Assembly: GCF_020532625.1 (NCBI RefSeq)
Contig: NZ_JAJAUY010000003.1
Span: 1 to 64,000 of the forward strand
Length of the DNA stretch: 64,000 nt
Source: Streptomyces antimicrobicus
GTDB taxonomy: Bacteria > Actinomycetota > Actinomycetes > Streptomycetales > Streptomycetaceae
Direction: 5' to 3'
Of the stretch, positions 14,077 through 29,989 are shown one piece after another; the first letter of the stretch is position 1; the number at the start of each line of letters is the position of its first letter. Made by a program: the position numbers and the translations under genes. The notes beneath the pieces were generated by a model. That model did not search any database. It saw only the letters and a list, made by a program, of their open reading frames with translations, and was not told where the DNA came from.

Positions 14077-15357
14077 GTGACCGAGAGCACCCCTGACATC
14101 GAAATCTCCCGACGCCGCCTGCTGGGCACGGTCGGCGCCGCGGGCGCCGCGGGACTGGCCCTGGGCGCCACCGGCGGCGCCCTGGCCCATTCCGCCCTCA
14201 CCGGCGAGACGGCCACCACCGGTGCCGCGGGCTCCGCGGGCGCCCTGAGCTCGCTCGGCAGCACCCAGGTGGCCTTCCACGGCGACCGCCAGGCCGGCAT
14301 CACCACACCGATGCAGTCCAAGGGACACCTCGTCGCCTTCGACCTGGCGCCCGGCGCCGGCCGGGCGGAGGCCGTCGCCCTGATGCGCCGCTGGTCGGAG
14401 ACGGCGCGCCGGCTGATGGCCGGGGAGACCGCGCCGACGGCCGACACCGGTATCGCCCTCGACGCCGGCCCGAGCTCGCTGACCGTCACCTTCGGCTTCG
14501 GTCACTCCTTCTTCGACCGCACCGGCCTGACCGCCCGCCGCCCGGTGGCCCTGGACCCGCTGCCCGAGTTCTCCGGCGACCGGCTCGATCCCCGGCGCAG
14601 CAACGGCGACCTGTGGATCCAGATCGGTGCCGACGACGCGCTGGTGGCCTTCCACGCCCTGCGCGCCCTGCAGAAGGACGCCGGAGAGGCGGCCCGGGTC
14701 CGCTGGCAGATGAACGGCTTCAACCGCTCCCCCGGCGCCACCGCCGAGCCGATGACCGCGCGCAACCTCATGGGCCAGGTCGACGGGACCGGTAACCCGA
14801 AGCCGTCCGACCCCGACTTCGACAAGCGGATCTTCGTGCCCGGCAGCGGCCCCGGTCCCGCCGAGCACGCCTGGATGGCCGGGGGCTCGTACGCCGTCGT
14901 CCGGCGCATCCGGATGCTGCTCGACGACTGGGACAAGCAGTCGCCGCAGAAGCAGGAGCAGGTCATCGGCCGCCGCAAGGCCGACGGGGCGCCGCTGACG
15001 GGCGGTACGGAGACCACGAAGCTGGACCTCGACCGGCTCGGGCCCGACGGCAGGCAGGTGATCCCGGCCAACGCGCACGCGCGGATCTCCGCGCCCGAGC
15101 AGAACGGCGGGGCCGCCATGCTGCGGCGGCCGTTCTCCTACCACGACGGGTTCGGTGAGGACGGCTCGCCGGACGCGGGCCTGCTCTTCATCTGCTGGCA
15201 GGCCGATCCGCTGCGCGGTTTCGTGCCTGTCCAGCGCAAGCTGGACCGGGGGGACGCCCTGTCGGAGTTCATCCGGCACGAGGCCAGCGGCCTGTACGCC
15301 GTGCCTCCGGGCCCGCGTCCCGGCGAGTACGTCGGAGCACACCTGCTCGAAGGATGA
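14077..15357 (+). CDS. dtpA: Tat-exported DyP-type haem peroxidase (DtpA type)
   Basis: A 426-residue secreted peroxidase. The twin-arginine signal SRRRLLGTVGAAGAAGLALGA is at the N-terminus. DyP signatures are GQVDGTGN (the GxxDG motif, catalytic Asp near 236), PANAHARI (proximal haem His near 334) and the late arginine in LRRPFSYHDG. In S. lividans DtpA is Tat-exported and needed for maturation of the copper oxidase GlxA (recalled literature), which fits this copper operon. The GTG at 14077 is 5 bp after the copCD stop, so the genes are co-transcribed. The region encoding residues 38-60 is Gly/Ala-rich. Confidence 0.92.
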   Translation: MTESTPDIEISRRRLLGTVGAAGAAGLALGATGGALAHSALTGETATTGAAGSAGALSSLGSTQVAFHGDRQAGITTPMQSKGHLVAFDLAPGAGRAEAVALMRRWSETARRLMAGETAPTADTGIALDAGPSSLTVTFGFGHSFFDRTGLTARRPVALDPLPEFSGDRLDPRRSNGDLWIQIGADDALVAFHALRALQKDAGEAARVRWQMNGFNRSPGATAEPMTARNLMGQVDGTGNPKPSDPDFDKRIFVPGSGPGPAEHAWMAGGSYAVVRRIRMLLDDWDKQSPQKQEQVIGRRKADGAPLTGGTETTKLDLDRLGPDGRQVIPANAHARISAPEQNGGAAMLRRPFSYHDGFGEDGSPDAGLLFICWQADPLRGFVPVQRKLDRGDALSEFIRHEASGLYAVPPGPRPGEYVGAHLLEG

Positions 15358-15387
15358 ACAACGCCGCGAAGCGGCACCTCACGGCAT

Positions 15388-15393
15388 TAGGCT
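15388..15393 (+). promoter_or_regulatory. -10 box of pheA, probable leaderless promoter
   Basis: TAGGCT lies 6 bases before the pheA ATG at 15400, so transcription should begin at or beside the A of the start codon. No ribosome-binding site precedes the ATG, which fits leaderless translation. No convincing -35 box is seen. Confidence 0.5.
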
Positions 15394-15399
15394 GACCGC

Positions 15400-16335
15400 A
15401 TGTCGGCCACTCGTTTCACCTATCTCGGTCCCGAGGGCACCTTCACCGAAGCCGCCCTGCGCACCCTGCCGGAAGCCGCGACCCGGGAGCTCGTCCCGAT
15501 GGTGTCGGTGCCGGCCGCCCTGGACGCCGTACGCAACGGTGAGGCCGCGGCCGCGCTGGTGCCGATCGAGAACTCGGTGGAGGGCGGGGTCACCGCGACC
15601 CTGGACGAGCTGGCCTCGGGCGAGCCGCTGATGATCTACCGCGAGGTGCTGCTGCCGATCGCGTTCGCGCTGCTGGTGCGGCCCGGCACCGCGCTGTCGG
15701 ACGTCAAGACGGTCACCGGGCACCCCGTCGCCCAGCCGCAGGTGCGCAACTGGCTGCGCGACCAGCTGCCCGACGCCGTGTGGGAGTCGGCCGCCTCCAA
15801 CGCCGACGGTGCCCGGCTGGTGCAGGAGGGCCGCTTCGACGCCGCCTTCGCGGGTGAGTTCGCCGCCGCCACCTACGGGCTGGTGCCGCTGGTCACCGAC
15901 ATCCACGACGCGGAGAACGCCGAGACCCGCTTCGTGCTGGTCGGCCGACCCGCCCGGCCCGCCGCGCCCACCGGCGCCGACAAGACCTCCGTGGTCGCCT
16001 GGCTCGGCGACGACCACCCCGGTGCGCTGCTGGAGCTGCTCCAGGAGTTCGCCATCCGCGGGGTCAACCTGATGCTGATCCAGTCCCGGCCGACCGGGGC
16101 GGGCATCGGCAACTACTGCTTCGCGATCGACGCCGAGGGGCACATCTCCGACCGCCGGGTGGGCGAGGCCCTGATGGGTCTGAAGCGCACCTGCCCGCAG
16201 GTCCGCTTCCTCGGCTCGTACCCGAGGGCGGGGGTCACGGCCAGTGACGTCCGGGCGGCCCGGGCGGGCACCTCGGACGGCGACTTCACAGCGGCCTCCG
16301 ACTGGCTGACGCGCTGCCTCGACGGCCGGGGCTGA
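15400..16335 (+). CDS. pheA: Prephenate dehydratase
   Basis: A 311-residue monofunctional enzyme converting prephenate to phenylpyruvate in phenylalanine synthesis. The N-terminal catalytic domain starts RFTYLGPEGTFTEAAL and includes PIENSVEGGVTATLDEL and NAETRFVLVGRP (the TRF catalytic motif). The C-terminal ACT domain (about 195-280), with GALLELLQEFAIRGVNL and LIQSRP, is the phenylalanine-sensing part. No chorismate mutase domain is fused, as usual in actinobacteria. A TAGGCT box 6 bases upstream implies a leaderless mRNA. serS follows after a DnaA-box region. Confidence 0.95.
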   Translation: MSATRFTYLGPEGTFTEAALRTLPEAATRELVPMVSVPAALDAVRNGEAAAALVPIENSVEGGVTATLDELASGEPLMIYREVLLPIAFALLVRPGTALSDVKTVTGHPVAQPQVRNWLRDQLPDAVWESAASNADGARLVQEGRFDAAFAGEFAAATYGLVPLVTDIHDAENAETRFVLVGRPARPAAPTGADKTSVVAWLGDDHPGALLELLQEFAIRGVNLMLIQSRPTGAGIGNYCFAIDAEGHISDRRVGEALMGLKRTCPQVRFLGSYPRAGVTASDVRAARAGTSDGDFTAASDWLTRCLDGRG

Positions 16336-16849
16336 CCCCTCGCAGTTGTCCACAAAGTTATCCACAGGCCCGGGAGGAGACCTGTGGACTAGTCGACACT
16401 TCCACGCGGCAAGGTCGACATATCGGTCGATGTCTCAGGTTTCGCAAGAGTGAGCGGCAGGTGAACGGCGTCATCGCCACACCGAGGATCAACTCTTTGG
16501 GGCGAGGCTTTCCCACCCGAATGAGTGTGTGGGGCGGGTTTGAACCATGAATCGGTACGCTCGTCGCGCGATCAGGAATGATCGCTTTTCGTGTCCACAG
16601 CGACGGCTCACAGCCTGTGGATAAGGAAGGTCGCCGACCCCATTCCTGTGGACAAGCCACTGGTCACGGCAGCCCCCTCCGGTCCGGACGGTCCCCTTTC
16701 CGGGGAATCGACCACCTTTTATTGACCGGCGGAGAACATCCTGATCCGGCCAGGCGTGAACACTTTTACATTCATGGCAATTAGGACATAGCGACACGCA
16801 GCGTGATATCGGTGTGATCCACGGAAGCCCCTGCCGGTAGCCTGGAGGG
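16336..16849. other. pheA-serS intergenic region with DnaA-box cluster
   Basis: In 514 bp without a gene, six DnaA-box-like 9-mers lie in two groups. TTGTCCACA is at 16346-16354 and, on the minus strand, at 16647-16655. TTATCCACA is at 16358-16366 and, on the minus strand, at 16616-16624. Relaxed boxes are at 16383-16391 (minus, TAGTCCACA) and 16591-16599 (GTGTCCACA). Boxes 2 and 3 form an inverted pair CCACAGG-N12-CCTGTGG, as do the two boxes around 16600-16620. An AT-rich patch follows at 16761-16790 before serS. This resembles the high-affinity D78 cluster that limits replication initiation in S. coelicolor (recalled literature; exact location not verified). Confidence 0.75.
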
Positions 16850-18127
16850 GTGATTGACCTTCGGCTACTCCGTGAAGACCCTGACCGTGTCCGCGCCTCG
16901 CAGCGCGCCCGTGGAGAGGACGTCGGCCTCGTCGACGCCCTGCTCTCCGCCGACGAGCGCCGCAGGTCTTCCGGCATGCGCTTCGACGAACTGCGCAACG
17001 AGCAGAAGAACCTCGGCAAGCTGATCCCCAAGGCCTCCCCCGAGGAGCGTGCCGAGCTGCTGCGCCGCGCCGAGCAGCTCAAGGCCGACGTCAAGGCGGC
17101 CGAGGCCGAGCAGAACGAGGCCGACGAGACGGCCCGCGCCCTGCTGCTCCAGCTCGGCAACATCGTCCACCCCGACGTGCCCGTCGGCGGCGAGGACGAC
17201 TTCGCGGTCCTGGAGACCCACGGCACGATCCGCGACTTCGCCGCCGAGGGCTTCGAGCCCAAGGACCACCTCGAGCTCGGTGAGCTGCTGGGCGCCATCG
17301 ACATGGAGCGCGGCGCCAAGGTGTCGGGCTCGCGGTTCTACTACCTCACCGGCATCGGCGCGCTGCTGGAGCTGGCCCTGGTCAACGCCGCCATCGCGCA
17401 GGCCACCGAGGCGGGCTTCGTCCCGATGCTGACGCCGGCGCTGGTCCGCCCGCGCGCCATGGAGGGCACCGGCTTCCTCGGCCAGGCCGCCGAGAACGTG
17501 TACCACCTGGAGAAGGACGACTTCTACCTGGTCGGCACCTCCGAGGTCCCGCTCGCGGCGTACCACATGGACGAGATCATCGACGCCGAGAAGCTGCCGC
17601 TGCGCTACGCCGGCTTCTCCCCGTGCTTCCGCCGCGAGGCCGGCACGTACGGCAAGGACACCCGCGGCATCTTCCGCGTCCACCAGTTCGACAAGGTCGA
17701 GATGTTCTCGTACGTCGCCCCGGAGGACGCCGAGGCCGAGCACCAGCGCCTGCTGGCCTGGGAGAAGCAGTGGCTGAACTCCCTGGAGCTGCCCTTCCAG
17801 GTGATCGACGTCGCCACCGGTGACCTCGGCGCCTCCGCCTCGCGCAAGTTCGACTGCGAGGCGTGGATCCCCACCCAGGGCAAGTACCGCGAGCTGACCT
17901 CCGCCTCGAACTGCGACGGCTTCCAGGCCCGCCGCCTGTCCGTCCGCGTCCGCGACGGCAAGAAGACCCAGCCGCTGGCCACGCTCAACGGCACCCTGTG
18001 CGCCGTGCCCCGCACCATCGTGGCGCTGCTGGAGAACCACCAGCTGGCCGACGGCTCGGTCCGGGTGCCCGCGGTGCTCCGTCCGTACCTGGGCGGCCGC
18101 GAGGTCCTGGAGCCGATCGCCAAGTGA
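16850..18127 (+). CDS. serS: Seryl-tRNA synthetase
   Basis: A 425-residue class II synthetase that charges tRNA-Ser in the cytoplasm. The N-terminal tRNA-binding coiled coil (about 1-105: [19 protein letters not shown] and the Glu/Lys-rich helices) precedes the catalytic domain. Motif 2 is [26 protein letters not shown] and motif 3 is [20 protein letters not shown]; the serine site [10 protein letters not shown] is also seen. Length is normal. The GTG start has GGAGG six bases upstream, and TAGCCT at 16838-16843 may be its -10 box. Its stop overlaps the start of the next gene by 4 bp. Confidence 0.97.
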
Positions 18128-18936
18128 GCCCGGCCCCCTTCCCGTACAAGCTGGTCGCGACCGATCTCGACGGCACCCTGCTGCGGGCCGACGGCACCGT
18201 CTCCGAGCGGACCCGGGAGGCACTCACCGCGGCCACCGCGGCCGGTGCGGTGCACATCATCGTCACCGGCCGCTCGGTGCCGTGGACCCGGGGCGTCCTG
18301 GACGACCTCGGCTACCAGGGACTGGCGGTCTGCGGGCAGGGGGCGCAGCTCTACGACGCGGGTGCGCACAAGCTGCTCACCTCGGTGACGCTGGACCGGC
18401 AGCTCGCCGGTCTGGCGCTGGCCAAGATGGAGGCGGAGGTCGGCCCGCTGGCGCTCGCCGCCAGCCGGGACGGGCTGGACGGCGCGGTGCTGCTCGGTCC
18501 CGGCTACCAGGTCCAGGAGGGGCTGCCGGCGGTCCAGCTCCAGGACACCGCCGAGGTCTGGACGGCGCCGCTGAACAAGCTCTACATCCAGCACCCCGAG
18601 CTCGACGACGACACGCTGGCCAAGGCGGCACGGGAGACCGTGGGCAACCTGGTCGACATCGTGATGGCCGGGCCGGGGATAGTGGAGATCCTGCCGCTCG
18701 GCCTGAGCAAGGCGACCGGGCTGTCACTGGCCGCCCGCCGGCTCAAGGTGAAGGCCGCCGAGACGATCGCCTTCGGTGACATGCCCAACGACATCCCGAT
18801 GTTCGGCTGGGCGGCGCACGGTGTCGCCATGGCCAACGCTCACGCGGACCTGAAGGCGGTGGCGGACGAGGTGACGACCTCGCACGAGGAGGACGGCATC
18901 GCCGTGGTGCTGGAGCGCCTGCTCGGCGCCGCGTAG
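18124..18936 (+). CDS. HAD-superfamily Cof-type phosphatase
   Basis: A 270-residue cytoplasmic phosphatase of HAD subfamily IIB. Motif I is [14 protein letters not shown] (both catalytic Asp), motif II is HIIVTGRS, the Lys of motif III lies in [13 protein letters not shown], and motif IV is [16 protein letters not shown] Cof-type cap lies between. Substrates of this family are usually small sugar or cofactor phosphates; none can be deduced. The GTG overlaps the serS stop (GTGA), so it is cotranslated with serS. A paralogue with the same motifs is at 37674. Confidence 0.9.
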
Positions 18937-29655: not shown

Positions 29656-29989
29656 GACGGGCCAGTGGCCGGAGAGAGGCCGGTGGGGCGAGGGAGGGCC
29701 GGTGGCCGGGAGGGGATCAGGTGGCCCATGTGGCGCAAGGTTCCACAGGTCTGCGCCACTGAGTCCACAGGGCGGATCGCCTGTTCGGTGACAATTACCG
29801 GCGAATCGGCTGTGGACAAGTGACTCTTCCTGTGGACGAGTGCGGTGTCACATCCTCACGTGTCACACGCTCGCGCGTCACATCGTCCCGCGTCCGACCC
29901 TCGGGTGCCCCCTCGTCCGGCGTCCGACCCCCGCGTGTCCCCTCGTCACGCGTCGTACGGCCCGGCGCCGTACCGGCATGCGCTGGACC
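29656..29989. other. 334-bp intergenic region: DnaA boxes and tandem repeats
   Basis: This gap holds four DnaA-box-like 9-mers: GGTTCCACA at 29739-29747, GAGTCCACA at 29761-29769, a perfect minus-strand TTGTCCACA at 29811-29819 and a near-perfect minus-strand TCGTCCACA at 29831-29839. A 15-bp tandem array follows (separate entry). The first 80 bases hold repeated GGCCGGTGG-type words. An ORF over the repeats is probably spurious. Confidence 0.65.
29845..29964. repeat. Degenerate 15-bp tandem repeat, about 8 copies
   Basis: Copies start at 29845, 29860, 29875, 29890, 29905, 29920, 29935 and 29950. The first is GTGTCACATCCTCAC and the third GCGTCACATCGTCCC; the last is half degenerate. Consensus is roughly GYGTCNNMYCNTCNC, with GYGT at the start of each unit best kept. 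The array lies between DnaA boxes and the aquaporin stop codon. Read in one frame it would give pentapeptides such as VTSSR, but codon use does not support a gene. Confidence 0.8.

What the first reader, a model, noticed from the sequence alone, without database searches (positions are those of the whole stretch)
16346..16655. Cluster of six DnaA boxes between pheA and serS, a likely replication-control locus
Four exact boxes (TTGTCCACA twice, TTATCCACA twice) and two relaxed ones fall within 310 bp of non-coding DNA, arranged partly as inverted pairs. That density is far above chance and not explained by transcription of the flanking genes. S. coelicolor has a high-affinity cluster called D78 whose loss causes over-initiation; this looks like its counterpart (recalled, location unverified).
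Basis: partly seen in the sequence, partly recalled or inferred. Interest (0 to 1): 0.75.

Follow-up and report, generated by a model that had tools for sequence, protein, structure and literature searches.

The report
Phased DnaA-box cluster near replication origin
A non-coding stretch between two housekeeping genes of a Streptomyces chromosome holds a cluster of binding sites for the replication starter protein DnaA, apparently the same control site already known as D78 in a model species; across the genus the two halves of the cluster are kept a near-whole number of DNA helix turns apart, which suggests that it works as one folded protein-DNA complex.

Summary
Four exact and two one-mismatch DnaA boxes lie at 16346-16655, in the 514-bp pheA-serS gap, 86 kb from dnaA. 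Of 39 exact boxes in the assembly, only here do four fall within about 310 bp. In 91 of 99 family genomes at least two exact boxes lie within 350 bp of each other in the 1.5 kb upstream of serS; none of 35 readable stretches from other families had a cluster. It is very probably the orthologue of the S. coelicolor D78 cluster: a genome with a 28/28 match to published S. coelicolor DNA upstream of serS carries the same boxes there. The name D78 is recalled; the 2006 paper was not held.

New here: the spacing between the two arms is quantised in Streptomyces (250, 256-261, 268-271, 278-281, 288-290 bp, three exceptions in 191), inferred length changes cluster at about 10, 20 and 30 bp, and a conserved central element is phased to both arms. 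This points to one folded nucleoprotein complex rather than loose titration sites. In S. coelicolor the predicted site of an EMSA-confirmed target of the receptor ScbR2 lies between the arms. Verdict: new member of a known kind with a newly seen architecture; DnaA binding is untested.

The parts
16346..16354 (+). DnaA box 1, TTGTCCACA (exact)
   Evidence: this position is less conserved in the genus
16358..16366 (+). DnaA box 2, TTATCCACA (exact); left anchor of the phasing analysis
16383..16391 (-). DnaA box 3, TAGTCCACA here (1 mismatch); the genus consensus at this place is TTGTCCCCA, usually 25 bp from box 2
16392..16398 (.). first GTCGACA element (genus consensus ACAAGTCGACA)
16414..16424 (+). 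second conserved element, GTCGACATATC here (consensus GTCGACAAATC), usually 55-56 bp after box 2; resembles a degenerate DnaA box TTGTCGACA on the minus strand
16487..16499 (+). central element, part 1: GATCAACTCTTTG; one mismatch (first position) from the recalled E. coli IHF consensus
16510..16523 (+). central element, part 2: TTCCCACCCGAATG (consensus TTNCCACCCGAANG), phased to both arms; similar words on the same spacing ladder in genera g6, g7, g8, g9, g13, g16, g17, not found in g3, g12, g14
16568..16585 (+). hairpin-like repeat followed by T residues, possible pheA terminator; consensus scan only
   Evidence: 1 found, mean 0.5 in shuffles
16591..16599 (+). DnaA box 4, GTGTCCACA (1 mismatch); the genus keeps mainly TCCACAG here
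16616..16624 (-). DnaA box 5, TTATCCACA (exact); right anchor of the phasing analysis
16647..16655 (-). DnaA box 6, TTGTCCACA (exact); 29-32 bp from box 5 in the 158 of 191 loci with an exact sixth box
16838..16843 (+). serS -10-like element TAGCCT, 6 bp before the GTG start, so probably a leaderless promoter (inferred)
   Evidence: sequence; conserved in the aligned profile
15400..16335 (+). pheA (prephenate dehydratase), upstream neighbour
16850..18127 (+). serS (seryl-tRNA synthetase), downstream neighbour

Best explanation
This is the D78-type DnaA-binding locus of a Streptomyces chromosome. It is non-coding, lies 86 kb (about 1.3% of the assembly) from dnaA/oriC, and is therefore copied soon after initiation. 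DnaA is inferred to bind its high-affinity boxes and be held away from oriC, so that doubling of the locus damps a second initiation. The architecture suggests more than passive titration: two inverted box trios about 260 bp apart, with a conserved centre, kept in helical register. I infer that DnaA on the two arms, with a protein or bend at the centre, forms one folded complex. Shown here: the boxes, their conservation, location, dyad layout and helical phasing. Stated by reviews for S. coelicolor: such clusters repress untimely initiation. Inferred: DnaA occupancy here, the fold, and whether the complex stores DnaA or also promotes ATP hydrolysis.
For: Boxes and excess over chance. At least two exact boxes within 350 bp in the 1.5 kb upstream of serS in 91 of 99 family genomes (80 within 1 kb by the script, 11 more counted by me from the same listing); a facing exact pair in 191 of 194 Streptomyces loci, duplicates included. 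serS lies 64-159 kb from dnaA in 31 of 31 genomes, chosen for long contigs from the 99. Three box clusters plus oriC on the window's own contig, as recalled for S. coelicolor (H69, H24, D78). Box2-box5 distance takes only 250, 256-261, 268-271, 278-281 and 288-290, with single loci at 185, 273 and 308; the 99 loci chosen without a DNA match show the same ladder. On a pheA tree with 181 tips, 22 inferred changes of 4 bp or more: none of 4-7 or 12-17 bp, 13 of 8-11, 4 of 18-20, 3 of 30, one of 48, one of 75. In-phase changes of 4-35 bp: 19 of 20, against 48 of 79 for pheA stop to box 2 (Fisher p = 0.003); resampling the control gives p = 1e-4 at 10.5 bp and none of 20000 draws for the best period between 10 and 11. 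Box2-centre and centre-box5 distances are separately quantised, also in seven sister genera. Function in S. coelicolor: passages of reviews PMC5742627, PMC10950094, PMC4585315.
Against: No DnaA binding data for this species. The 2006 D78 paper could not be read. One spacing (308) is clearly off phase and 273 is borderline. Outside Streptomyces the total spacing is less regular (217-251 in g3, 244-246 in g14, 274 in g16, 287 in g12) and the central motif was not found in g3, g12 or g14. In the stretches read, g2, g15 and part of g5 show no cluster next to pheA or serS, and one Streptomyces has a transposase-like frame between the arms, so the locus is not indispensable. The control interval is itself slightly above the 50% expected in phase (48 of 79). 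The phasing shows a stereospecific constraint, not that DnaA is the protein that makes it.
Confidence: 0.8

Rival explanations
1. Plain titration: the boxes are independent high-affinity sinks for DnaA; the layout between them does not matter.
For: Multiple exact boxes near oriC. Absence of the cluster from this place in some lineages is tolerated.
Against: Independent sinks need no fixed order, no conserved centre and no helical register, all of which are seen.
Confidence: 0.2
2. A transcription-control site: DnaA, or the centre-binding protein, regulates serS (or pheA 3' end formation) and the replication effect is secondary.
For: Box5 to serS start is also quantised, more weakly (50 of 61 changes in phase, Fisher p = 0.009 against the control interval; resampling p = 0.005 at 10.5 bp, 0.048 for the best period). 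serS has a -10-like element right before its start codon. ScbR2 binds a fragment upstream of serS in S. coelicolor (PMC4595836, Table 2).
Against: In genera g3 and g4 the cluster lies more than 1 kb from serS in 11 of 15 genomes; in the two of these where pheA was in the stretch, it starts 6-18 bp after the pheA stop, and in one a deacetylase-like frame lies between cluster and serS. The listed serS fold change with ScbR2, taken as mutant against wild type, is 0.947. The 14 pheA-serS pairs seen outside the family have gaps of -4 to 246 bp and no box cluster.
Confidence: 0.12
3. A datA-like inactivation site: the folded complex speeds up hydrolysis of DnaA-bound ATP, with a nucleoid protein bending the centre.
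For: Similar size (datA minimal 183-262 bp), boxes on both sides of an inter-box bend site, interval lengths matter, near oriC (PMC5742627 passages). The centre holds GATCAACTCTTTG, one mismatch from the recalled IHF consensus; with the first base left free the motif is in 74 of 177 loci and in none of the pheA coding strands scanned.
Against: The essential datA boxes all point the same way; these form an inverted dyad. Streptomyces lacks E. coli-type IHF (recalled). The strict IHF consensus is in 0 of 177 loci; the motif was picked after inspection and is weak in sister genera.
Confidence: 0.2
4. Chance or composition artefact of an AT-richer intergenic gap.
For: The gap is 59% GC in a 72% GC window.
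Against: Shuffle, Markov and Poisson tests and conservation in many genera.
Confidence: 0.01

Closest known systems
D78 DnaA-box cluster of Streptomyces coelicolor (Smulczyk-Krawczyszyn et al. 2006, J Bacteriol; not held, recalled, and cited in passages of PMC5742627, PMC10950094, PMC4585315)
   Same: A cluster of DnaA boxes near oriC in the same genus; by the 28/28 match, S. coelicolor has DNA of this locus upstream of serS; serS and pheA are SCO3961 and SCO3962.
   Different: Layout of D78 itself not compared, as the paper was not held. Helical phasing, the central element and the ScbR2 overlap were not mentioned in any passage I saw; the searches gave capped listings, some very broad, so this absence is weak evidence.
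datA of Escherichia coli
   Same: Origin-proximal non-coding DnaA-box locus of about 200-300 bp, boxes flanking an inter-box region that is bent, interval lengths matter.
   Different: Different genes around it; box directions differ (head-to-tail versus inverted dyad); IHF dependence not shown here.
DARS1/DARS2 of E. coli
   Same: Compact DnaA-box cluster outside oriC.
   Different: DARS promotes DnaA reactivation; recalled D78 deletion gives more, not less, initiation. Core layout not compared.
DnaA-box clusters of Bacillus subtilis (Okumura et al. 2012, as cited)
   Same: Clusters that repress untimely initiation, according to the reviews.
   Different: No sequence comparison made here.
oriC of the same chromosome (C208:103265-103839)
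   Same: DnaA-box cluster.
   Different: Lies after dnaA and is made mostly of relaxed boxes, with one exact box, against four exact boxes here.

Membership tests
D78 cluster (Streptomyces) | Several exact DnaA boxes clustered in non-coding DNA | tested here: met
D78 cluster (Streptomyces) | Same syntenic place as in S. coelicolor | tested here: inconclusive
D78 cluster (Streptomyces) | Close to oriC | tested here: met
   86 kb from dnaA on the same contig; 78-104 kb in 7 other Streptomyces
D78 cluster (Streptomyces) | Very high DnaA affinity; deletion raises initiation frequency (recalled) | not testable with these tools
   needs purified DnaA and a deletion strain
datA | Essential boxes in one direction with an IHF site between | tested here: not met
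   boxes form an inverted dyad; strict IHF consensus absent, a relaxed one only suggestive
datA | Stimulates DnaA-ATP hydrolysis | not testable with these tools
   biochemical assay needed
oriC | Located next to dnaA/dnaN | tested here: not met
   the dnaA-proximal cluster is at C208:103265-103839, 86 kb away
DARS | Core boxes I-III in the DARS arrangement, promotes ADP release | not tested
   layout not compared; activity not testable

The most novel reading that the evidence does not exclude
D78-type loci are phased, looped DnaA-control complexes whose centre is occupied by a signalling or architectural protein. In S. coelicolor this could be ScbR2, the antibiotic and butyrolactone receptor homologue, whose EMSA-confirmed serS-upstream target has its predicted site between the two arms (offset 101-128 bp from box 2) with a listed serS fold change of only 0.947. 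The locus would then couple chemical signalling and development to replication frequency.
Probability: 0.15. Interest if true: 0.8.

Novelty: new member of a known kind. Interest (0 to 1): 0.5.

Why it matters
How non-E. coli bacteria hold back re-initiation is poorly understood, and whether D78 merely soaks up DnaA or works as a structured inactivation site like datA is open as far as I could see. The helical phasing found by comparative genomics makes that directly testable with a half-turn insertion. It also names a conserved central element to purify proteins on, and links a published ScbR2 target to a likely replication-control site.

Tried and rejected
RNA explanation: with E up to 1, Rfam gave two weak, sub-threshold hits in 15000-18500, both outside the gap. 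The sigma-70 promoter scan of 16300-16900 found none. The central element as a motif shared by the other two clusters of the contig: not found there. An extra neutral control, the gap before pheA, was first computed in a wrong reading frame and redone: no clear periodicity (R at most 0.27 for 109 loci, periods 10-11; 22 loci share one length). A first pass read some loci on the wrong strand and gave false zero counts; corrected. A spacing count with box 2 fixed as TTATCCACA gave two off-ladder Streptomyces values, 274 and 283; in those genomes (G083, G080) the second box is TTGTCCACA 13 bp further on, which allows either, gives 261 and 270. A literature search for DnaA ChIP-seq in Streptomyces listed no paper that by its title reports this. 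Other actinobacterial families: 40 class-level loci were scanned. One (L062) is a Streptomyces with boxes and four gave no readable serS start; of the 35 remaining, three had under 300 bp of upstream DNA and none showed a cluster (one-mismatch boxes in five). The Rayleigh value of raw spacings (0.83) was not used as proof, because most loci share one modal length by descent; the event-based test was used instead. That test depends on one tree and one parsimony reconstruction; no bootstrap was done. The central motif was found (up to 3 mismatches) in 187 of 191 loci; single values off its ladders are 35, 121, 201 and 250 from box 2 and 40, 64, 110 and 235 to box 5, some probably false motif hits. 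92 of the 191 loci came from a DNA-similarity search and could be biased toward conserved layouts; the other 99 (the window locus twice among them) show the same ladder. The 191 include the window locus three times and other genomes twice; 177 remained after dereplication.

Full report
Observation. Four are exact. In 2000 Markov versions of the gap, the most seen was one exact box. In the assembly there are 39 exact TTRTCCACA sites, and this is the only place with four in about 310 bp. The directions are + + - on the left and + - - on the right, so the cluster is a dyad of two trios, with 25 bp between boxes 2 and 3 and between boxes 4 and 5.

Place in the chromosome. The DnaA C-terminal domain is encoded at C208:102780-102980 on the same contig, so the cluster is 86 kb from dnaA. 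The dnaA-proximal cluster at 103265-103839, taken as oriC, has one exact box and many relaxed ones. Two more clusters lie on this contig outside the window: 69417-69690, just upstream of a MATE-family gene, and 117858-117911, next to crgA. Three origin-near clusters is what I recall for S. coelicolor (H69, H24, D78). In 31 of 31 family genomes, chosen for long contigs from the 99 with a serS hit, the distance from serS to the DnaA domain was 64-159 kb, 78-104 kb in the seven Streptomyces among them (positions typed from the two listings).

Conservation. In 99 family genomes with a serS hit among 101 searched, 67 have at least three exact boxes within 350 bp in the 1 kb upstream of serS, and 80 have at least two. 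In 11 more (ten of genus g3 and one of g4) such a pair lies 1.0-1.4 kb upstream of serS (my count). In the two of these where pheA was in the stretch examined, it starts 6-18 bp after the pheA stop, and in one of them a polysaccharide-deacetylase-like frame lies between cluster and serS (named from the translation, no family search). That gives 91 of 99. The other eight are one Streptomyces with one exact and several relaxed boxes, and the sampled genomes of g2 (two), g5 (four) and g15 (one). Next to pheA in nine genomes (these seven and the two without a serS hit), one had the full cluster, two of four g5 genomes had boxes about 0.9-1.0 kb downstream, one g2 genome had one exact and one relaxed box about 1.0 kb downstream, and five had none in the 1.4-1.5 kb read. 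Outside the family, 35 readable serS upstream stretches had no cluster, although pheA lies upstream of serS, with a gap of -4 to 246 bp, in 14 of them. So the gene pair appears older than the cluster.

Link to S. coelicolor. SCO3961 is serS (PMC4595836, Table 2; section 22 and passages read) and SCO3962 is pheA (PMC6585502, one passage). The ScbR2 site listed for SCO3961 matches 28/28 at locus L261, at offset 101-128 from box 2. That genome, one 8.63-Mb contig and unnamed, has four exact boxes at 4170935-4171246 and the DnaA domain at 4251846; three other loci match 27/28, so it is S. coelicolor or a relative. Reviews state that DnaA-box clusters in S. coelicolor repress untimely initiation, citing the 2006 paper (passages of PMC5742627, PMC10950094 and PMC4585315). 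The 2006 paper itself was not held. Its cluster names, the eight-fold affinity and the deletion phenotype are recalled.

Helical phasing. In 191 of 194 Streptomyces loci (177 after dereplication) the distance from box 2 to box 5 falls on 250, 256-261, 268-271, 278-281 or 288-290, with three single exceptions (185, 273, 308). On a pheA tree of 181 distinct sequences, parsimony infers 71 changes: 49 of 1-3 bp, none of 4-7, 13 of 8-11, none of 12-17, four of 18-20, three of 30, one of 48 and one of 75. The control interval, pheA stop to box 2, shows 129 changes without a clear ladder, including 6 of 4-7 bp and 24 of 12-17. Among changes of 4-35 bp, 19 of 20 are within 2.6 bp of a multiple of 10.5 against 48 of 79 in the control (Fisher p = 0.003); resampling the control gives p = 1e-4. 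The distance from box 2 to the central motif (150-153, 161-164, 172-174, 182-183) and from that motif to box 5 (97, 105-108, 117-119, 136-138) are each quantised apart from a few single values, so the indels fall in several places. Seven sister genera have the motif on a similar ladder; g3, g12 and g14 lack it. The distance from box 5 to the serS start shows a weaker ladder (50 of 61, p = 0.009; resampling p = 0.005 at 10.5 bp and 0.048 for the best period). The gap before pheA shows none.

Interpretation. Indels between two sites that survive mainly as whole helix turns are the classic sign that proteins on the two sites touch or that the DNA between them is wrapped or looped (general knowledge). 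The simplest reading is that DnaA on both arms, plus something at the centre, forms one complex. The central DNA contains GATCAACTCTTTG, close to the recalled E. coli IHF consensus (74 of 177 loci with the first base free, none with the strict consensus). This motif was noticed after inspection and is a lead only. The ScbR2 site is a second lead: it lies between the arms, its promoter fragment is listed as confirmed by EMSA with the exact site predicted by motif, and the serS fold change is 0.947. The terms DnaA and replication do not occur in that paper's main text. Neither lead is shown to matter for replication.

Verdict. The locus is very probably the D78-type DnaA-binding site of this Streptomyces, with function inferred by orthology. 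The kind is known. The phased two-arm architecture and conserved centre were not in the passages I saw, which do not include the original study.

Noticed in passing
G000:C208:69417-69690 (outside the window; L234:5417-5690): Second origin-near DnaA-box cluster (six boxes, two exact) just upstream of a MATE-family transporter gene; G076 and G005 show a similar exact pair about 35 kb from dnaA.
   Followed up: partly
G000:C208:117858-117911 (outside the window; L236:13858-13911): Third cluster: a long inverted repeat ACATACTTATCCACAG...CTGTGGATAAGTATGT with four boxes, next to the end of crgA.
   Followed up: partly
L093:832-2166: In Streptomyces sp. H27-H5 a 444-aa transposase-like frame (looks ISL3-type; no family search made) sits between the two arms of the cluster, a natural disruption of the locus.
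   Followed up: partly
window 16838-16849: serS has TAGCCT six bases before its GTG start, highly conserved in the aligned Streptomyces gaps, which suggests a leaderless transcript.
   Followed up: partly
L198:251-1075: In a genus g3 genome a polysaccharide-deacetylase-like frame separates the DnaA cluster from serS, while the cluster stays next to pheA.
   Followed up: partly
window 29811-29839: One exact (TTGTCCACA) and one relaxed DnaA box 20 bp apart on the minus strand; not examined.
   Followed up: no
window 16568-16600: Hairpin-like repeat with a short T run between the centre and box 4, possibly a pheA terminator inside the cluster; conservation in the genus is loose.
   Followed up: partly
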